Made by a program: the position numbers and the translations under genes | The notes under the pieces: generated by a model | Database searches by the model: none | The model's input: only the letters and a program-made list of their open reading frames with translations | What the model was told of the DNA's origin: nothing | In this document: positions 6,978 through 64,000 of the stretch, piece after piece | How positions within the stretch are numbered: the first letter of the stretch is position 1 | Layout of the letters: each line of letters opens with the position of its first letter | DNA from: Haloferula helveola | Lineage (GTDB): Bacteria > Verrucomicrobiota > Verrucomicrobiia > Verrucomicrobiales > Akkermansiaceae | DNA: 64,000 bases | Reading direction: 5' to 3' | Assembly: GCF_037076345.1 (NCBI RefSeq) | Contig: NZ_AP024702.1 | Location: 1,612,001 to 1,676,000, forward strand

Positions 6978-9212
6978 TTACTTGAGCTGCTTGACCAGTC
7001 CGAGGAACTCGGCGCGGCGCTCGTTCAGATCGTCCGCGAGGGCCGGCTCGGCGATTTCCTCGACCTTGTCCCAAGGGACGTCGGCGACATCCGGCATCTG
7101 GCGGAGCTTCATTCCGAACAGAGCCACCGCGGATGCCATCCGATAGTCGGTGCCGGCTTCCTCCCAGGTGACCGGCTTCCCTTCGACCTGCGTCTTGATC
7201 TCGGTGCTCTTCTCGCCCTCGGGGTGCTTGTAGCGGAGCTTCAGGGTCAGCCACGCGGGGCTTTCCACCAACTCGCGGCGGTCGGCGGGCCGCTGGTATT
7301 CGAGCTCGTCGACATCACCGGTGCCCGGGGAGTCCACGCCAACCGGAACGATCTCATAGAACGCGGTCACCGTGTGACCCGCTCCGATGTCGCCGGCGTC
7401 GACCTTGTCGTTCTTGAAGTCCTCGTTGCGCAGCATCCGGTTGGCATAGCCGATCAGGCGGTAGGCCTTCACCTTGCCGGGGTTGAACTCGATCTGGATC
7501 TTCACGTCCTTGGCGATCGTGATCAGCGTGCCGGTCAGCTTCTGGAGGAAGATGCGCTGCGCCTCGCTGTCGCCATCGATGTAGAAGTAGTTGCCGTTAC
7601 CCTCGTTGGTGATGGCCTCGAGCATCGCGTCGTTGAGATTGCCCGTGCCGAAGCCGAGCACGCTCAGGCTGACGTTCTTCGCGGCGTTGCCCTTGACCAG
7701 TTCGACCAGTTGGCCCTGGCCGGTCGTGCCGACATTGAAGTCGCCGTCGGTCGCGAGGATCACGCGGTTCACTCCGCCATCGACCTTCTTCTGAAGCGCC
7801 ATCTGGTAGGCGCGGTAGAGCCCCGCACCACCGTTGGTCGAGCCGCCGGCTTCCAGTTTTCCGAGCGCCTCGACGGCCTTCTTCTTGCCGGCATCGTCGA
7901 GGGTCGTCGGCTCGAGGACCACGCCTTCGGTTCCGGCATACACGACCATTCCGACGCAGTCGCGCTCGTCGAGCGAGTCGATCAGCGTGCGCATCGAGCG
8001 CTTGAGCATCGGCAATTTGTCGGGCGACTGCATCGAACCCGAGACGTCGATGAGAAACACCAGGTTCGAGGCCGGTCGGGCGTTGTTGTGGATCTCGCGG
8101 CCCTTGATCGCCACCCGGGCCAGCAGGTGCTCGGGCTGCCACGGGCAGGTCGCCAGCATGCTTTGCACCGCGAACGGGCTGTCACCCTTCGGCGCCGGAT
8201 ACTTGTAGTCGAAGTAGTTGATGCACTCCTCGATGCGCACGGCGTCGGGTTGGATCGACTGGCCGTTGCGGATCATACGGCGCAGGTTCGTGTAGGACGC
8301 CGTGTCAACGTCGGTCGAGAAGGTCGAGAGCGGATCGTTCCACGGCGACTTCCACGGCTGGTCGGTCAGACGGCCGTAGTTCTCGCGGTCGAGTTGCTGT
8401 GGCTTGTTCGGCCGCGGGAGGATCTCCTCCTGGAGCCTTTTCGGAACCGGTGCTCCGTCCGCGGGACGGGCAGGAACCGATCGATGAAGCCCGCCACGAC
8501 TGCCTTGGTCCAAAGGTTCGCTGGGCGCAGCGGGCACCTCTCGCCGGATGACTTTCTCCTTCGAGGTCGTATGTCCTTGGATATTTACCCGCCCCCGCAA
8601 GTGCGTGTCAGCGTCAGACGAGGTGGGATCCTGACGGAGCTGATCCGCAGCGGGTGCCGGCTTGGGTGAAACCTCGAGCGTCGCGATCTCTCCGTCCACC
8701 ACGGCGTCACCCACCTCACGCCCGGCCCCGCCGGTCGCGTCGAGGTCCCGCCCCATCGTCGCACTCTTCGCCGCCCGCTCCATCGATTCATCCATCAATG
8801 CATTGCCGGGTTGTGCGGGTGTCGCAGCGGCAGGAGCCTCCATGAGAGACGTTTCCCCTCCTTGCGCGGCCGATTCGGCTTCCATCTTTGCCTCGGCCAG
8901 CGGCATGGCAGTGGGGCGCATCCTTTCGTGCTCCGGTGATTCGTGGGCCGGGGCCGCGCCGGCCTCGGCCGCATCGTACTGGGCCAGCTCGGGCGCGAAG
9001 TTTCCGCGCTTGTGGTAAATGAACGCCCCCCCGATCGCGACGGCGGCGGCTAGGGAAAGCGGCAACGCGCCCTTCCACCGGGAGGTTCGGCGGGACGGCT
9101 GGCCGTCGTCATCCAGCGCCTCCTCGATCGAGGACAGCAGGGATTCGTCGGCTTCGCGTTTGCGGGCCTGCTCCTTGAGCAGGGCGTCGATGAGTTGATC
9201 TTCGTGATTCAT
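6978..9212 (-). CDS. VWA domain protein with DUF3520 C-terminus (YfbK-like)
   Basis: A 744-residue membrane-anchored protein. Residues 1-50 are an acidic cytosolic segment followed by one hydrophobic segment (ALPLSLAAAVAIGGAFIY). A long low-complexity Ala/Glu/Pro linker follows. A VWF_bact N-domain (SFSTDVDTASYTNLRRMI) leads into a von Willebrand A domain with MIDAS residues in FLIDVSGSM (Asp389), and a C-terminal DUF3520 domain. This layout is that of YfbK-type proteins. The ATG at 9212 is used because earlier in-frame codons lie inside the sigma factor gene. It follows that gene by 23 bp, so the N-terminal cytosolic tail plus one TM may act as the partner anti-sigma region. That role is inference. 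Confidence 0.85.
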   Translation of the reverse strand: MNHEDQLIDALLKEQARKREADESLLSSIEEALDDDGQPSRRTSRWKGALPLSLAAAVAIGGAFIYHKRGNFAPELAQYDAAEAGAAPAHESPEHERMRPTAMPLAEAKMEAESAAQGGETSLMEAPAAATPAQPGNALMDESMERAAKSATMGRDLDATGGAGREVGDAVVDGEIATLEVSPKPAPAADQLRQDPTSSDADTHLRGRVNIQGHTTSKEKVIRREVPAAPSEPLDQGSRGGLHRSVPARPADGAPVPKRLQEEILPRPNKPQQLDRENYGRLTDQPWKSPWNDPLSTFSTDVDTASYTNLRRMIRNGQSIQPDAVRIEECINYFDYKYPAPKGDSPFAVQSMLATCPWQPEHLLARVAIKGREIHNNARPASNLVFLIDVSGSMQSPDKLPMLKRSMRTLIDSLDERDCVGMVVYAGTEGVVLEPTTLDDAGKKKAVEALGKLEAGGSTNGGAGLYRAYQMALQKKVDGGVNRVILATDGDFNVGTTGQGQLVELVKGNAAKNVSLSVLGFGTGNLNDAMLEAITNEGNGNYFYIDGDSEAQRIFLQKLTGTLITIAKDVKIQIEFNPGKVKAYRLIGYANRMLRNEDFKNDKVDAGDIGAGHTVTAFYEIVPVGVDSPGTGDVDELEYQRPADRRELVESPAWLTLKLRYKHPEGEKSTEIKTQVEGKPVTWEEAGTDYRMASAVALFGMKLRQMPDVADVPWDKVEEIAEPALADDLNERRAEFLGLVKQLK

Positions 9213-58144: not shown

Positions 58145-58936
58145 ATGCTTAGTTGCGGTCGTCCCCGCTCCTCACGGCCAGCGGCCCACCGCTTGAGGTC
58201 GGGGCACACCCGCACGAGTCCACCTCGTGCTCCGCTGCCCACCCAAGAGACCCAGCCCCAGCCAAACCCCGAGCGGCGAAGACCGACCCAACCCCGCCTC
58301 AACACCGTATTCAATGAATACGGCTTCCGATACTACCACCCCGAACTCGGACGGTGGGCCTCACGGGACCCGATTGAGGAGGCTGGCGGGATCAATCTGT
58401 ATGGGTTTGTGGGCAATGCGACCAGAAGGCGGGACACACTGGGCCTTACTGAGGATATTGCAGATTGCGAGGAGGCTATGAAGCGTCTCGATTTTGCACT
58501 ATTTTTGTATCACCCGCCTGAGTATGACAATTCGGACCATATCGAAGAATTGCGCTCTGTAGTTCGCAACCTTTGTGGCGATGTGCAAACCTTTGAGTGC
58601 GAGCGCCAAGAAGGAACTTCCGGGTCGGGCGTCAGCACTGATTTCCGCTGCTCCGACGACAATGCATGCGGCAAGACATGCTGGTACGATTGCGTGGTTA
58701 CCAGCGGGCCTGATCTAGGAAAACTGTTCGAGATTCTGGTCGAATTCACGGTCGACAACTCTGATCGAAGATCACACGAAGTGCTGTGTCCTGACTTTAG
58801 AGCGAAAGGCTATCTTGATGAAGGCTTTACGCCCAATGGTAGTTACATAGCAACCTTTGCGGTCTTTGGTTTTGAGGTATGTAGACCGCCGGTGGAATGG
58901 GATGTAGAAAAATACAGAGAGAACAATAGCCGATGA
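58145..58936 (+). CDS. Orphan RHS core tip with variable C-terminus, module 1
   Basis: A protein of up to 263 residues. The RHS-associated core signature [20 protein letters not shown] then [20 protein letters not shown] lies at residues about 58-97. The part before it is Pro/Arg-rich and may not be coding, so the true start is uncertain. The tail after LGL (about 165 residues) is unlike any toxin I can name and holds about nine Cys, with [16 protein letters not shown]. No YD repeats precede it, so it is only the end of an RHS protein. Its stop overlaps the next gene as ATGA. Confidence 0.65.
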
Positions 58937-59502
58937 AACACGACTACTTAGTGGCTGCAATTTTTGGTGTGATCTTTGCGCTTTATTCAAGGCTGCCAGC
59001 CGACGAATTGAAAAATGAATCGATTCAGGTCCTCGGTAGGCTCGGTAAGGTTGGATCGGAAAAGAACTATAACAAAGTTGTATCCGAGGATGCCAAATCG
59101 TCGGTTCGAGTTGCGCGGAGAGGAGAGCGGACCGAAGTGACTGCTGACCTTCTGGGGGTCGAGAGGCATCTTACGCTAAATGGACTTCTGGAAATGCGAG
59201 AATTTTTCTTCTTCCAGGGAGGGGTTTGGATATTGTTTTCACGCCGAGATCCCGTCCTTGCGAAACCGGTGTTGCTTGCATGCATCCACCAAAACCAAGC
59301 TCACGACAAATTCTATGATGCTCAACTGAAAGAGAAAGAAGTCATGATTCGAGACGTCTTTGGGCGAGAGGGCGAGTTCTTGATACTCGGGATCTCTTTG
59401 CCTGTACCAGATCCAAAGACAGGTAGATCCTTAGTCAAAGCAAAAGTTGACATTGCACTGCTTTCAAAGGCTAACGTCGATGATTGGGTGACTTCAAAAT
59501 AG
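58933..59502 (+). CDS. Partner of RHS module 1, exported or anchored protein
   Basis: A 189-residue protein. The N-terminus [20 protein letters not shown] is a hydrophobic signal or anchor. The rest is a mixed alpha/beta domain with [39 protein letters not shown] and [16 protein letters not shown]. No family recognised. It is translationally coupled to the RHS tip (ATGA), as expected for an immunity-type partner. Codon use is lower in GC than the core genes. Confidence 0.65.
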
Positions 59503-59836
59503 CTCCGCACAACCACGTCGGACATCGGTCCGTAATAGTTGCAGCCAACCGCAATGGGCTTGCCAACCGGTAATGATGCCAAGTTTCGGATCAAAGCTTC
59601 TCGTGCGCAGTGGCCCTGCGGGTGCTTGCAATCTTATCGTTTTGAACGCTTCAACACCCGGCCCCTCTCCCAATCCTGTGCTGTCCCGACCAGTCCGAAC
59701 CCGCGCCTTGAATTCCATCTTTCAGGCAGCGCATCAGTTCTTCACGTCGGTAAGAAACGCGACTTATCCGATGATGTCGTTGACAGCTTGGAGCCTTTGG
59801 ACAAATGCCGCAACTGCCGGGGATCAGAAAAGCAAT
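59503..59836. other. Intergenic stretch without a supported gene
   Basis: The 334 bp between the module 1 partner and the opposite-strand HTH gene. Frames on both strands are open over short stretches only (for example minus 59494-59718), and their translations do not look like proteins. It may hold decayed sequence from an older module. Confidence 0.4.
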
Positions 59837-60355
59837 TCAGCTGGCGAAGATGCTCGGCACGGAGTGTTCATGGCAAAACGCCTCGATTTTCCGCCGACCA
59901 CTTCCGCTTGGAAGGCGACGAAGGTTTTCCCAATCAAGAAGTGTAACGGCTCCAACTCCCATCTGTTTCGCCATTTCCCATTGCGCGAGGCCAAGCCGCT
60001 TCCTGATTGCGCGGAGGCGGTGACCGGGCTCACTGCTTGAGCAATCCCATCCATCCCGATCCTTCCGGACAGTTCGTAGACGTGGTTGTAAAAAGTAGCT
60101 GTGAAGATGCTTGTGAAGGTACTCGAAGTACTGCTCCCGCTCCTCCTTCTTCAGCCGGTACCACACCGCGATGTTCAGAGTCCGCGTGACCTTCTGCATC
60201 ATGGCGAGGGTGAGCATCCGCCCCTTCCGCGCGCGCTGGACCTGCTTGTGGGTGAGCTGCTCCGGGGAGGCATCGACCATGTCGTGGTTGCTCAGGCCCC
60301 ACTGCTGCATCAGGGCGTCAACCGGCTGGGTTCCCAAATCTCGCGCTTCGCTCAT
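59837..60355 (-). CDS. Two-domain helix-turn-helix protein
   Basis: A 172-residue protein on the strand opposite to the RHS modules. The N-domain (about 1-85) reads MSEARDLGTQPVDALMQQWG and contains LTHKQVQRARKGRMLTLAMM, a DNA-binding-like type known to me from Verrucomicrobia as a stand-alone protein. A linker rich in Arg and Ser follows. The C-domain (about 115-172), GHRLRAIRKRLGLAQWEMAK then QMGVGAVTLLDWENLRRLPS, is an XRE-type HTH. A fusion of two normally separate HTHs is odd; a frameshift or read-through cannot be ruled out. It may regulate the flanking modules. Confidence 0.6.
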   Translation of the reverse strand: MSEARDLGTQPVDALMQQWGLSNHDMVDASPEQLTHKQVQRARKGRMLTLAMMQKVTRTLNIAVWYRLKKEEREQYFEYLHKHLHSYFLQPRLRTVRKDRDGWDCSSSEPGHRLRAIRKRLGLAQWEMAKQMGVGAVTLLDWENLRRLPSGSGRRKIEAFCHEHSVPSIFAS

Positions 60356-60683
60356 GGGCGGAGTCTGACTGGCGCCCGCCGGGCTGGCAACCGGCAAGCA
60401 AAGGACCCGCCAAACCCGGAATCAGATACCCGCAGGTCGGCTCTGGGAGAGCCTTTCATCGCTGGGGTACTTCCTCGCTGTCAGCGCTGGGATCCTCGAG
60501 TTTTCCATTCCGCCGCGCTGGCTGCTGGGTTCGTGCTCGCGTGGGGGCTCGCTCGACCACGCGTAGAAACTCGGAGAGTGGCGAGAGCCGACTGACGGGA
60601 GGTCCACTCCACCAAACTGATGGGGCCCAGGCTCCCAGATTTCACCTTTCAAAACAACCGCCGAGTCGCCACCATTCTCTGCC
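60356..60683. other. Intergenic stretch upstream of RHS module 2
   Basis: The 328 bp are GC-rich with no supported gene. CCTTTCAAAAC at 60645-60655 recurs at 62531-62541 in front of module 3, each exactly 100 bp before the RHS core. Any module 2 promoter should lie here, but none is clear. Confidence 0.4.
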
Positions 60684-61496
60684 GTGGCTTTCTGGTCCAA
60701 CGTCCGCCTTCACGATGACCCCGTACCCCCGGTCGGGCGGAGGAGGCTGAACATCTACGGCTTCCGATACTACCACCCCGAACTCGGGAGATGGGCCTCG
60801 CGGGATCCGATCGGGGAACGCGGCGGGATCAATCTGTATGGGTTCGTGAGGAATAGGGCGACCTACCGGGTTGATTTCTTCGGCTTGGCTGAGCCCGGAT
60901 CGAAGGCTCTTCCTGTTCCGCCCAAGCAAGGTCCATGGTTGCCTGGGGCTGGCTTTGTGACCCCCCGAGAAGGCCCCGATGACGCGCCGGACATTTTCCC
61001 GGATAGTCGTTTGGATAGCGCTTACATGGTGGACATGGTGCTCCACGAGCAAAGCTATGAGCGGCATTGTTGCTGTCTGTATCGAAACTCCAGAAACCTG
61101 GAGCCAATCGGGAGGGATCGCATCAACAAGCGTGGATCTTTGATGCCGAGTCACGAGACGAGTGTTTACATGTACGTAAAGGAGCCGGAAGGCGGCTGTG
61201 GGACACTACCGAGGAATATCAAGGTGCGCATACTCATAGTTAAGTCGGGCACCGCCGGACGGAGTCACCGGCTGCTTGAGGGCGCAGATGGAACTGTTCA
61301 CGCGGAGAACTTCAACTACCGGTATTTTGATCTGTGCGACAAGGATGCTTCAGGCTTGATGTCGAAGACCGCTCAAGAGGTTGAGCTGGATCGTATTCGA
61401 GAAGATTTGAACGAAGAGTACGAGAGGATTGAGAGTGAGCACAAGAACCCGGGGCCATTTGGAACAGGGGACGATTTCGACGAAGGCGATTGGTGA
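60684..61496 (+). CDS. Orphan RHS core tip with variable C-terminus, module 2
   Basis: A protein of about 270 residues starting at GTG. Core signature: [20 protein letters not shown], then [20 protein letters not shown] (residues about 25-66). The tail of about 200 residues is not recognised; it has [40 protein letters not shown] and a charged end [20 protein letters not shown]. The GTG lies 72 bp before the core, the same distance as in module 3. The partner gene starts 18 bp after the stop. It is likely an acquired tip, not a full RHS protein. Confidence 0.7.
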
Positions 61497-61514
61497 AGTG
61501 TGCATCTAAGAGCT

Positions 61515-62240
61515 ATGAATCCAAGATGCTTCCGACTGATGGCGAGAAGCGCACCCTCGATGATCGTGGCTGCGCTTCTTCTCGGATGCGCGGCTTCGAC
61601 CTGCGAAGCGGAAGATCCGGGGCGAAGATCGGTTCGACTATTGTGTGAAGGCGATGCGATCCTTCGCGATGCGCTGCAGGTTGCCGAGCCGCAGGCAGGG
61701 CGCAATTCCAAACGAGTCGCCTTCTCAATGCTGGCTACTTCCCTTTCCTTTGCGCAACACGGTGGTGCTGTATTCGAGTTTCATGCGAAAAAGGAGCTGG
61801 GTGACGAAGCCGCCAAGCTGAAATGCTCCAAGCTGGATGTGGCCAACCGCACGATCACGTTTTCAGTTGACTATGGCCCTTCGGTTGGGCTGGGAAACCG
61901 CTACTTCTCGATTGTTTACCAGGTTCAAATTGCTCGCGCGATGTCACTCGAATTGCTGGGGGATGAAGCTAATATGGAGATTTCGTATGAGGACTTCCTG
62001 AAGTCCTACAAGCTCTGGTGCCACCAAGCGGCACGTGTGGTTTCACGACAGAGAGCGAAGGACTTGGCTGACTGGGTTAGCGAACACGAATCAGAGCCCA
62101 TCAAGCAATGGCTGACGGTTGATGAGGGGAAGGAACTCCCTGAGTTCTGGGCACGTAACGAGGACATTTATGACCGGAGTGCGCGGACGCTTTATCGGTC
62201 GTTTGTCGAGGCGAAGGAGATTGCCTTGGGTGATCGATAG
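61515..62240 (+). CDS. Partner of RHS module 2, putative lipoprotein
   Basis: A 241-residue protein. The signal APSMIVAALLLGCAASTCEA has a lipobox LLGC, so it is probably a lipoprotein. The mature part looks helical, with VAFSMLATSLSFAQHGGAVF, FSVDYGPSVGLGNRYFSIVY and YEDFLKSYKLWCHQAARVVS. No family is recognised. An alternative GTG start is at 61500. Coupled after module 2, it would be the cognate partner, possibly an immunity or chaperone-like protein. Confidence 0.65.
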   Translation: MNPRCFRLMARSAPSMIVAALLLGCAASTCEAEDPGRRSVRLLCEGDAILRDALQVAEPQAGRNSKRVAFSMLATSLSFAQHGGAVFEFHAKKELGDEAAKLKCSKLDVANRTITFSVDYGPSVGLGNRYFSIVYQVQIARAMSLELLGDEANMEISYEDFLKSYKLWCHQAARVVSRQRAKDLADWVSEHESEPIKQWLTVDEGKELPEFWARNEDIYDRSARTLYRSFVEAKEIALGDR

Positions 62241-62569
62241 TGCATCACGGCCCGCAGCATTTCTTGGACTTCCCGCCGCTGCCGCTGAGGCATGGTTCGT
62301 TGCGGCCGACGCCGACCGGTGTCCTTCGGCGGGGTCTGTTCAACGGGGTCGGTCCTCGCCTTTAGCATTTGCGACGGGTTCCATGGTAGTATCGAGCAGG
62401 CGGTTTGAGGCGGTGCGGGTGGGCGGAGTCCGTGGCGTCTTGCGCTCCAGTCGGCGGCGCGGCGGGTGGCATGGAATCCCCTTTCCGGTGAGGACGATCT
62501 CCAGTTCGTCGGAGTGACTGCTTCGAATCCCCTTTCAAAACGACGATCATCCGGTCACTATAGTGCGTC
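62241..62569. other. Intergenic stretch upstream of RHS module 3
   Basis: 329 bp with no supported gene. The first half is G/C-rich with repetitive GGCGG and GGCGGG words. CCTTTCAAAAC is at 62531-62541. The last 60 bp are AT-richer and could hold the module 3 promoter. Confidence 0.4.
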
Positions 62570-63298
62570 GTGGGTTCCTGCTCATCTGCTGCAATTTTTG
62601 ACCAAGCGCTTCAAAACAGAAGCGCCTTCGCGCTCTTCTACTACGGCTTCCGGTACTACCACCCGGAACTCGGGAGGTGGATCTCGCGGGACCCCATCGA
62701 AGAAGAGGGTGGCGTAAGCCTTTACGGATTCGTTGGAAATGACGGGCTTAACGGATGGGATCTATTGGGGCTGTTACTAGATGCGACCAATATCAAAGAT
62801 GGGGAACCATGCTCTGAATGTTGCAAGACCTGCGAAATTGATGGCTCTAAACCGAAGATTGCAAACAACGGCACCAAGGGCCATTTGGTGAAGGCCAAGG
62901 TAGTCAGACCAACCTTCAAGGATATTTGCTTATCCGATAAGTGCGAGGGGGAGTGTTGCGCGGCGACTTTCACTTGGTGGACCTGCTACTACAAGTTCTG
63001 CAAACAGAATACAGGGCAATATTTTGAGTTGACGGTGAAACCGGAGCGTGAAGCGGACGGCTGGAGAGCTGTTACTGTAATGGTTAAAGCTTGGCGTTAT
63101 TGTAAGTGCAACAGCGGCAAGTGGGAGTGCAAGAACAGCGAAGAAAAGCAAGAGAAGGAAGATTATCTTAGGAACAAATGGGGAGGCGAAAAGGTATATT
63201 ATGGAGAGTCAAACAGACTCAGTTTCATACTGGATGACGACAAACGCCCGGAAAGCGCCAATTGGATTCTGAGCACCAATAGGAATACAATACAATAA
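62570..63298 (+). CDS. Orphan RHS core tip with Cys-rich C-terminus, module 3
   Basis: A 242-residue protein starting at GTG. Core signature: [20 protein letters not shown], then [20 protein letters not shown] (residues about 25-66). The tail of about 170 residues is very rich in Cys: [33 protein letters not shown] and [11 protein letters not shown]. That is about 15 Cys, suggesting disulfides or metal binding. Low GC and AT-rich codons mark the tail as foreign to the genome. The stop overlaps the partner start (TAATG). Confidence 0.7.
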
Positions 63299-63780
63299 TG
63301 AGATGTGCTTTTTCTATAGTGGTGGCGCTCGCTATGCCTTCGTGCGATAACCACAAAAGTGGTGCGGGAGAAGCGCTATCTGGGTCGGTCGAGGCTCATG
63401 ACGGCATCCAGCATGACCTGAAGATTCCAGAAAGTGGGGCGCAGAAAGACATTATTATCTCGAATTGGTATCTGGACCAATATAGAGCGTTCGACACCCT
63501 TAACAAGATCGAAGGAGTAAATTTGGAGTCTGGCACCAAAATAAGCGAATCCCCGGATAGCCTGCTCAACAAGCAGCTTACTTGCTTGAAGACGCTCGCG
63601 CCTGATGCTTTTGAATCAAGTCCGGTCATGAGCTGGTTCGAGGATCAGGAGTTGGTTGTTAAGGGGCTCTATTCCCAATTGGGAGTAGAACTGGAAATGA
63701 AGGATGCTGGATCCACGACTTTGAAATGGGCCGGTGATATAGTCGAGCTCCAGAAGCGCGCTCTTGAAGAGCTGAGATAA
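63298..63780 (+). CDS. Partner of RHS module 3, putative lipoprotein
   Basis: A 160-residue protein. The N-terminus [16 protein letters not shown] resembles a lipoprotein signal, though MPSC is only a loose lipobox. The mature part is helical and acidic: IIISNWYLDQYRAFDTLNKI, LNKQLTCLKTLAPDAFESSP and VELQKRALEELR. No family recognised. It is coupled to module 3 by TAATG overlap. By analogy with modules 1 and 2 it is probably the partner of that tail. Confidence 0.6.
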   Translation: MRCAFSIVVALAMPSCDNHKSGAGEALSGSVEAHDGIQHDLKIPESGAQKDIIISNWYLDQYRAFDTLNKIEGVNLESGTKISESPDSLLNKQLTCLKTLAPDAFESSPVMSWFEDQELVVKGLYSQLGVELEMKDAGSTTLKWAGDIVELQKRALEELR

Positions 63781-63794
63781 ATAGAAGCCGATGC

Positions 63795-63991
63795 AGGCTT
63801 CCCCTGTTCTGCGATATCTGCTCGACCGCGACGAGCCGATCATCATTCTCTATCCGGACCTTTGCCAAAGTGTAAGCTTCACCTCGCGTGGGACTGTAGG
63901 CTTCCCCTGTTCTGAGGCCACGGGAAATGGGAGAGTACCGCTCGGCAGTCACCGATCCGATTCCTCTCATTTCAATTTGTCCCACGCGAGG
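63795..63991. repeat. Direct and inverted repeats at the right edge
   Basis: A 17-bp direct repeat (AGGCTTCCCCTGTTCTG) is at 63795-63811 and 63898-63914. A perfect 13-bp inverted repeat pairs CCTCGCGTGGGAC (63882-63894) with GTCCCACGCGAGG (63979-63991). The stretch 63781-64000 holds no supported gene. It may be the end of a mobile element or a repeat block continuing past the window. Confidence 0.55.
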
Positions 63992-64000
63992 GGAGACTTA

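What the first reader, a model, noticed from the sequence alone, without database searches (positions are those of the whole stretch)
58145..63780. Array of three orphan RHS tips, each with its own downstream partner gene
Three consecutive modules share a near-identical core ([26 protein letters not shown]) followed by three unrelated tails and three unrelated partner genes. Each pair is coupled: ATGA overlap, 18-bp gap, TAATG overlap. There are no YD repeats, so these are tips only. Core DNA of modules 1 and 2 contains stretches of identity over 30 bp, a natural site for recombination. This looks like a store of exchangeable tail/partner cassettes.
Basis: partly seen in the sequence, partly recalled or inferred. 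Interest (0 to 1): 0.8.

Follow-up and report, generated by a model that had tools for sequence, protein, structure and literature searches.

The report
Recombinase-served store of toxin tips
A bacterium keeps five swappable toxin-tip and partner-gene pairs beside a DNA-recombining enzyme whose relatives in sister species sit next to, or are fused to, the same kind of tip, which suggests a dedicated machine for changing the business end of a weapon.

Summary
It has five RHS-core tips (three on +, two on -), each with an exported-looking partner, and ends at a tyrosine recombinase gene just past the window. That recombinase belongs to a clade apart from XerC/XerD-type enzymes. In 57 genomes an RHS core lies within 3 kb of 11 of 14 close relatives of it and of 0 of 136 other tyrosine recombinases. 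In sister species it is often fused in frame to an RHS core and tail. In 10 of 10 contigs of relatives holding both nearby, a full-length RHS gene is inverted to the recombinase. Cores sharing a contig show excess synonymous identity only over the first 36-48 nt. In three assemblies contigs end where a branch inside the core would put them. My reading: crossing-over at a short site inside the core exchanges tail and immunity pairs, shufflon-like. In this genome no RHS body is at the locus; the two full-length RHS genes lie about 1.65-1.67 Mb away, so the array is probably a detached store. No rearrangement was observed.

The parts
58145..58936 (+). Tip 1: short leader, RHS core (58319-58420), Cys-containing tail
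58933..59502 (+). Partner 1, candidate immunity protein with N-terminal hydrophobic segment
   Evidence: ATGA overlap; hydrophobic N-terminus; no Pfam family above cut-off
59837..60397 (-). HTH protein gene lying between modules 1 and 2 (role unknown, perhaps a passenger)
   Evidence: Pfam HTH_3 27.7 bits (cut-off 23)
60684..61496 (+). Tip 2: leader, RHS core (60756-60857), tail
   Evidence: Rhs_assc_core 46.2 bits; core DNA 86% identical to tip 1; tail not searched for homologues
61515..62240 (+). Partner 2, lipobox-like N-terminus
   Evidence: 18-bp gap; lipobox pattern found
62570..63298 (+). Tip 3: 23-codon leader that resembles that of tip 4, RHS core (62642-62743), Cys-rich tail
   Evidence: Rhs_assc_core 50.2 bits; tail homologues (40-43%) behind RHS-body sequence in 3 other genomes of 189; conserved cysteines
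63298..63780 (+). Partner 3, lipoprotein-like by eye
   Evidence: TAATG overlap; hydrophobic N-terminus; weak similarity to the gene after the matching tail in G165 (23% over 92 aa, E 3e-4 for one comparison)
63870..64000 (.). 25-nt imperfect inverted repeat between the converging modules 3 and 4 (second arm ends 3 nt past the window). The array continues past the window: partner 4 (L009:6531-6941 -), tip 4 (L009:6928-7566 -), partner 5 (L009:7605-8081 -), tip 5 (L009:8059-8943 -, M76-like), recombinase (L009:8989-10005 +)
   Evidence: I8, arms 84% complementary; for the genes beyond the window

Best explanation
The array is a recombinase-served store of RHS toxin tips. Each cassette begins with DNA coding for the RHS core, followed by a unique tail (candidate toxin) and an exported partner (candidate immunity protein). 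A tyrosine recombinase of a lineage tied to such tips sits at the array's end. I infer that it crosses over at a site of about 40 nt at the start of the core-coding DNA, so that tail and partner are exchanged as a unit while the left flank (RHS body, recombinase linker or short leader) stays in place. In sister species the same kind of recombinase stands in inverted orientation to a full-length RHS gene; crossing-over there would invert a segment (in 9 of 10 cases one carrying RHS body and recombinase), put the other tail on the RHS protein and park the spare tail in frame behind the recombinase. Shown: the array, the lineage, the association, the fusions, the inverted layout, the limited identity footprint and the contig ends. 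Inferred: that the recombinase acts on the core, that inversion is the main reaction, that tails are toxins and partners immunities. In this genome no RHS body is at the locus, so the array is probably a detached or residual store whose tips stay silent unless moved.
For: RHS core within 3 kb of 11 of 14 close relatives of the recombinase (10 of 14 within 1 kb) against 0 of 136 other tyrosine recombinases, on lists cut short by the tool. The window recombinase lies in a clade of 34 rows (support 100/99): 27 labelled RHS-associated, its own 3-member subgroup (also next to tips) and 4 without a core; 8 XerC/D-type rows form a separate clade (98/94). In 11 contigs recombinase and core share one reading frame, and in 4 more the frame is open to a contig end 9-26 nt into the core. 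For one pair dN/dS is 0.14 in the recombinase and 0.53 in the linker, against 1.14 and 1.32 in the linker's other frames. Full RHS and recombinase are inverted in 10 of 10 contigs of relatives holding both nearby. Synonymous-codon identity of same-contig cores is .82 .72 .59 .49 in the first four 4-codon bins against .49 .50 .28 .38 between genomes, and near background after codon 16. In 5 of 6 loci the RHS core matches the recombinase-borne core of its own locus best. Contigs G029:C87, G437:C263 and G453:C299 start in the RHS core region and end in the recombinase core; their RHS ends lie 119, 141 and 117 (+2 shared) nt from the core start, as predicted if RHS body and recombinase linker both lead into the same core and tail.
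Against: No rearrangement was observed: no reads, no strain pairs. The window's own array has no RHS body; in its chromosome recombinase and RHS genes are on the same strand, 1.65 Mb apart, and the one RHS core aligned differs (32 of 45 nt). In 1 of 6 loci (G017) the RHS core matches another species' recombinase core better (49 of 60) than its own (46). Six of the 10 contigs run through both cores without a break. In another phylum (L246) a full RHS gene and a distant recombinase are in direct orientation. Shuffling contigs within genomes gives only modest support for locus-level matching (60 of 2000 as high); a small genome-wide codon effect exists too (13 of 2000 in the control codons). 10 of 47 recombinase contigs show no core, several of them cut by contig ends. 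On the whole 72-row tree the RHS label needs 11 changes, so it is not one simple origin. Only one linker pair was tested for selection. Structure models of two tails were unusable.
Confidence: 0.65

Rival explanations
1. Ordinary orphan rhs tips displaced by homologous recombination (RecA), as in Salmonella; the recombinase is a bystander from an old mobile element.
For: Orphan rhs-CT/rhsI modules are known and in Salmonella LT2 are proposed to be activated by homologous recombination over 522 bp at 95% identity (PMC3967940, passages read). Cores in the window array share runs over 30 bp. G443:C1 has two further tips in frames of 708 and 720 aa downstream of the full gene.
Against: Excess identity is confined to about 36-48 nt, short for RecA exchange (general knowledge). 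The recombinase association is 11 of 14 against 0 of 136, and many recombinases are fused to the tip.
Confidence: 0.16
2. The recombinase is the integrase of a small mobile element that inserts into RHS-type genes and brings a tail and immunity pair; the arrays are stacks of integrated or decayed elements, and reversible inversion is not the point.
For: In other phyla, relatives at about 40-47% identity occur as co-oriented copies about 7-9 kb apart in 6 of 78 loci (L233, L235, L239, L240, L243, L253; L239 and L240 overlap on one contig). In 7 of the 13 loci listed gene by gene an ORF of 943-1154 aa precedes the recombinase; the one tested is DnaG-like (189 bits, below the cut-off of 283.6), and two downstream ORFs of nine tested have weak RHS-core hits below cut-off. 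L246 has a full RHS gene and recombinase in direct orientation.
Against: Orientation to the full RHS gene is inverted in 10 of 10 Verrucomicrobiota contigs, whereas insertion would give direct repeats. No repeat common to module 3' ends was found in the window array. No primase-like ORF was noticed by eye beside the recombinase in the Verrucomicrobiota loci listed; it was not searched for.
Confidence: 0.19

Closest known systems
Shufflon of plasmid R64 (Rci recombinase, pilV)
   Same: Tyrosine recombinase with several alternative C-terminal segments separated by recombination sites, joined to a constant N-terminal part (PMC3414803, passages read)
   Different: Cargo is an RHS tail plus partner, not a pilus adhesin tip; the recombinase is XerC-like (nearest NF002331, below cut-off) and in sister species often fused to a tail; the constant gene is missing from the window locus; inversion not shown
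Orphan rhs-CT/rhsI modules of Enterobacteriaceae
   Same: Fragment of the conserved part, variable tail and linked downstream gene (PMC3967940, passages read)
   Different: Those lie downstream of a main rhs gene, with 522 bp of 95% identity in LT2, and are proposed to recombine homologously; no site-specific recombinase partner appears in the passages read
rAID systems of Bacteroidales and recombinase-adjacent polyimmunity loci
   Same: A tyrosine recombinase next to an array of polymorphic-toxin-related small genes (PMC12247911 and PMC3482391, passages read)
   Different: Those hold immunity genes without toxins and, in rAID, co-oriented with conserved intergenic motifs; here each cassette is a tip plus partner, in both orientations, and the shared site lies inside coding DNA

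Membership tests
Orphan RHS tips | RHS core fragment followed by a variable tail, no RHS repeats | tested here: met
   5 of 5 tips pass the Rhs_assc_core cut-off; 0 of 5 have a Pfam RHS repeat, three of them scanned from the core on
Orphan RHS tips | Located downstream of a full-length rhs gene sharing a long near-identical stretch | tested here: not met
   nearest full RHS cores at G000:C1:3334115 and 3348730; the second matches module 1 at 32 of the first 45 nt, the first was not aligned
Orphan RHS tips | Tail is toxic and partner neutralises it | not testable with these tools
   indirect only: tail 5 just reaches the Pfam M76 peptidase cut-off (25.2 of 25.2 bits); partners mostly have an export-like N-terminus (89 of 110 rows against 226 of 798 control ORFs)
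Shufflon | Tyrosine recombinase gene adjoining alternative C-terminal segments in both orientations | tested here: met
   three + and two - tips; recombinase start codon 45 bp from the predicted start of tip 5
Shufflon | Short shared recombination site at the start of every segment | tested here: inconclusive
   identity footprint of 36-48 nt with a sharp left edge; no binding site defined
Shufflon | Constant N-terminal gene in the same locus | tested here: not met
   absent from the window locus; present in inverted orientation in 10 contigs of relatives
Shufflon | Recombinase of the Rci family | not tested
   best NCBIfam match is NF002331 XerC subfamily, 247 bits, below its cut-off of 371; no Rci sequence was compared
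Shufflon | Inversion demonstrated | not testable with these tools
   only circumstantial contig-end evidence in relatives
Integron | IntI-type integrase | tested here: not met
   TIGR02249 92.6 bits, cut-off 265
Integron | attC-like repeat at the 3' end of each cassette, cassettes co-oriented | tested here: not met
   repeat search finds the core, some upstream leader DNA and short pairs shared between modules, nothing common to module 3' ends; orientations mixed
rAID | Array of co-oriented orphan immunity genes without toxins | tested here: not met
   every partner follows a tip; both orientations occur

The most novel reading that the evidence does not exclude
A new class of DNA-rearranging weapon locus: a dedicated XerC-like tyrosine recombinase, itself fused to an RHS core and the spare toxin tail, flips a segment carrying the RHS delivery body and the recombinase between two or more tail-immunity modules, using a crossover site of about 40 nt hidden inside the coding DNA of the RHS core. 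The window array is a detached outpost of such a system.
Probability: 0.48. Interest if true: 0.9.

Novelty: new variant of a known kind. Interest (0 to 1): 0.8.

Why it matters
In the case studied in Salmonella, tip change in an RHS toxin gene is put down to homologous recombination after gene duplication (PMC3967940, passages). A recombinase lineage tied to RHS tips would make tip exchange a programmed, testable reaction, would explain tip arrays and recombinase-tip fusions in Verrucomicrobiota, and would give a marker gene for finding toxin and immunity pairs.

Tried and rejected
Considered and set aside: an integron (IntI score far below cut-off, no attC-like repeats); a rAID array (tips present); an anti-phage defence system (PADLOC, 0 of 9 proteins; partners 4 and 5 not scanned); pure decay of an RHS gene (tips and partners have intact frames, and tail 3 recurs in other genomes); RecA-only exchange (rival 1).

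Led nowhere: structure models of tails 1 and 3 from single sequences, mean pLDDT 47.6 and 40.0, not used for any fold search. Tails 1 and 5: only the query's own genome hit among 189. Tails 2 and 4 were not searched. A 330-aa gene beside the second full RHS gene gave no match in the nine recombinase-linked loci compared. No shared DNA stood out between recombinase and tip when the window genome was compared with two relatives holding the same recombinase subtype (scores 20 and 21, within the shuffle range); those two relatives share a stretch of about 39 nt with each other next to the recombinase start (score 32 against a shuffle maximum of 28). In the genus of the tail-3 homologues (59 genomes) a search with the subtype B recombinase gave only matches of 1e-46 to 1e-49, not examined further. 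Literature: ten searches, of each only the listed rows were seen (2 to 20 titles and abstract starts; some searches had hundreds of further papers); none of the listed ones describes such a system by title or abstract start. Most subscription journals are not in that library.

Limits: the lists used were typed from tool listings that were cut short (150 core rows, 150 recombinase rows). In one search cores were taken by a pattern, so divergent cores were missed; two window-genome cores were added by coordinate. One search counts same-contig pairs without a distance limit (42 pairs), only those under 40 kb (36 pairs). The 47 contigs are part of the recombinase matches; the others were not looked at. 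In one search partners were picked automatically, one tip was counted twice, 3 tips without a partner ORF were left out, and the control ORFs are any-frame ORFs, a weak control. One search stopped with an error after the values quoted.
Full report
What is there. The window is G000:C1:1612001-1676000 of a 5.68 Mb single-contig genome, and the array continues past its right end. In all there are five tips: three on the + strand (core starts at window 58319, 60756, 62642) and two on the - strand (L009:6928-7566 and 8059-8943), each followed by its own partner gene. All five pass the NCBIfam Rhs_assc_core cut-off. Tip 5 starts 45 bp from a divergent gene for a 338-aa tyrosine recombinase, L009:8989-10005 (Pfam Phage_integrase, 132.6 bits). 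Repeat analysis finds the core DNA shared by the modules, a longer shared leader between tips 3 and 4 (inside a 192-nt inverted pair, 74%) and a shared palindromic stretch at the core start of tips 1 and 5; nothing is common to the module 3' ends.

Full-length RHS genes exist in the genome, with cores at G000:C1:3334115 and 3348730, about 1.65-1.67 Mb from the array and on the same strand as the recombinase. The core of the second matches module 1 at 32 of the first 45 nt, while modules 2 and 4 match it at 41 and 43; the first was not aligned. So the array looks like its own pool, not a set of pieces of that gene. A 955-aa gene upstream of the second RHS gene has relatives in five recombinase-linked RHS loci of other species (G017, G443:C1, G420, G437, G491) out of nine compared; the 330-aa gene between gave none. 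This suggests that body and array were once linked and have come apart here; that last step is inference.

The recombinase belongs to a distinct lineage. In 57 genomes (its own and 56 relatives), 14 recombinases matched the window one at about 1e-48 or better; an RHS core lay within 3 kb of 11 of the 14 and within 1 kb of 10, against 0 of 136 weaker tyrosine recombinase matches (both lists were cut short by the tool). Two of the three exceptions are cut by a contig end inside an RHS core (G005:C48, G029:C87); the third, G043:C65, falls among the XerC/D-type rows in the tree. A tree of 72 rows puts the 8 XerC/D-type rows in one clade (98/94) and the window recombinase with G017:C225 and G010:C145 (100/100) inside a clade of 34 rows (100/99) of which 27 are labelled RHS-associated, 3 are this subgroup (also beside tips) and 4 have no core in the stretch held. 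Over the whole tree the RHS label needs 11 changes, so association is not one simple origin. Of 47 contigs with such recombinases (46 chosen by recombinase matches, 1 by its core), 37 carry an RHS core; several of the other 10 are cut by contig ends. Among 78 named loci found with an alignment of the recombinase, 23 of the 30 best matches carry a core, and 4 of the other 48 do.

In one subclade (15 rows, 100/100) the recombinase is fused to a tip, or open to a contig end inside the core, in 14 of 15 (G013 is the exception). Over, recombinase and core share one open frame in 11 contigs (plus a recombinase remnant in G443:C2), and in 4 more the frame stays open until the contig ends 9-26 nt into the core. 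The linker is 64-156 aa in the eight cases printed. For the pair G010:C62 and G005:C48 dN/dS is 0.14 in the recombinase and 0.53 in the linker frame, but 1.14 and 1.32 in the linker's other two frames, so the linker looks translated (one pair only).

Layout with the RHS body. [quoted passage not shown] In 10 of 10 the two are in inverted orientation, nine divergent and one (G491) convergent. In six the recombinase-borne tip is seen whole, in three the contig ends in its core, in one (G481) before it. These loci are related, so they are not ten independent trials, but the genes between the two differ among lineages. A distant locus in another phylum, L246, has a full RHS gene and recombinase in direct orientation. 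Recombination between two inverted cores would invert the segment between them and swap the tails.

A footprint inside coding DNA. In 36 same-contig pairs of cores, identity at synonymous codons is .82.72.59 and .49 in the first four 4-codon bins from the Tyr-Gly, against .49.50.28 and .38 in 2469 between-genome pairs; from codon 17 on the two are close (.62 .45 .43 .48 against .62 .41 .47 .47), and nucleotide identity rises abruptly at the left edge of the core (.45 to .92). Shuffling genome labels never reaches the observed value for codons 1-12 (0 of 2000); for codons 17-34 it does so 13 times, so a small codon-usage effect exists. Shuffling contigs within genomes gives 60 of 2000 for codons 1-12 and 991 of 2000 for codons 17-34. 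Over the first 60 nt the full RHS core matches the recombinase-borne core of its own locus best in 5 of 6 loci (51-54 of 60, others 36-49 in the table); in the sixth, G017, its own gives 46 and another species' 49. In one genome, G443, two loci have different core types and each RHS core matches its own: 54 against 39 and 51 against 38. I read this as exchange at a site of about 40 nt.

Contig ends as a population signal. Of the ten contigs, six run through both cores, and three start in the RHS core region and end in the recombinase core (G029:C87, G437:C263, G453:C299). If the same core and tail are reached from both the RHS body and the recombinase linker in the sequenced sample, a de Bruijn assembler breaks the contig one word length past the point where the two left flanks diverge. 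The RHS ends are 119 and 141 nt from the core start in G029 and G437, where the flanks share no base before the core, and 117 nt in G453, where they share two, again 119 in all. In G453 a second contig, C205, begins with exactly these 119 nt and continues with tail, partner and further genes. In G437 the overlaps are 141 nt on both sides, with C266 and C330. In G029 no matching contig is held. That 119 and 141 are usual word lengths of a common metagenome assembler is recalled, not from a call. This is circumstantial: a repeat of another origin at the core could do the same, and in G437 the recombinase-side break needs a further tail that I did not identify.

Tails and partners. Of 110 tip rows with a partner ORF, 89 partners have a hydrophobic or lipobox-like N-terminus, against 226 of 798 control ORFs; all five window partners do. 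Tail 3 is cysteine-rich; its homologues (40-43% identity) in G079, G165 and G167, 3 of 188 other genomes searched and of a different genus of the same family, sit on open frames of 289-502 aa with RHS-body sequence upstream of the core, keep all 13 of its cysteines by my count, and are followed by a lipoprotein-like gene; the one compared has weak similarity to partner 3. Tail 5 matches Pfam Peptidase_M76 exactly at the cut-off and resembles a tail in G437 (E 9.9e-08); by eye its motif reads EELFH instead of HExxH, so activity is uncertain. Partner export and Cys-rich tails would fit action outside the cytoplasm; that is inference.

Mechanism. Shown: array, lineage, association, fusions, inverted layout, limited identity footprint, contig-end pattern, recurrence of tail 3. 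Inferred: that the recombinase acts on the core, that inversion is the chief reaction in loci with a body, that spare tails are parked behind the recombinase or in arrays, and that the window array is a detached store. Toxicity and immunity are inferred from the RHS context.

Comparison. It works like a shufflon as described in PMC3414803 (passages), but the constant gene is absent from the window locus and inversion is not shown, so I do not file the window array as a shufflon. It matches orphan rhs tips (PMC3967940, passages) in gene content, but lacks the adjacent full gene with long identity. It recalls rAID arrays (PMC12247911, passages) and recombinase-adjacent polyimmunity loci (PMC3482391, passages), but carries tips. 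In other phyla more distant recombinases were seen with a large upstream ORF (one tested, DnaG-like, below cut-off) and some weak RHS-core tips; an integrating element is therefore a serious rival origin. Ten literature searches (named in Tried and rejected) listed no report of this system.

Noticed in passing
L233, L235, L239/L240, L243, L253 (other phyla): Relatives of the recombinase occur as co-oriented copies about 7-9 kb apart; an ORF of 943-1154 aa precedes the recombinase (L253's is DnaG-like, below cut-off) and small variable genes follow. It looks like a mobile element stacking toxin-like cargo.
   Followed up: partly
L045:711-2054 (G001:C51): An ORF that looks by eye like a group II intron reverse transcriptase lies between two RHS tips whose cores look incomplete.
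   Followed up: no
window 63870-64003: A 25-nt inverted repeat with an 84-nt loop between converging modules 3 and 4; a 20-nt direct repeat (95% alike, 103 nt apart) overlaps the area at window 63792; function unknown.
   Followed up: no
window 58305-58323 and L009:8783-8801: A palindrome CCGTATTCAATGAATACGG overlaps the core start of tip 1; nearly the same stretch lies at the core start of tip 5 in opposite orientation; a possible binding site, untested.
   Followed up: no
L010, L011 (G000:C1:3325000-3356000): The two full-length RHS genes of the genome lie about 15 kb apart with different partners; the 955-aa gene upstream of the second has relatives in five recombinase-linked RHS loci.
   Followed up: partly
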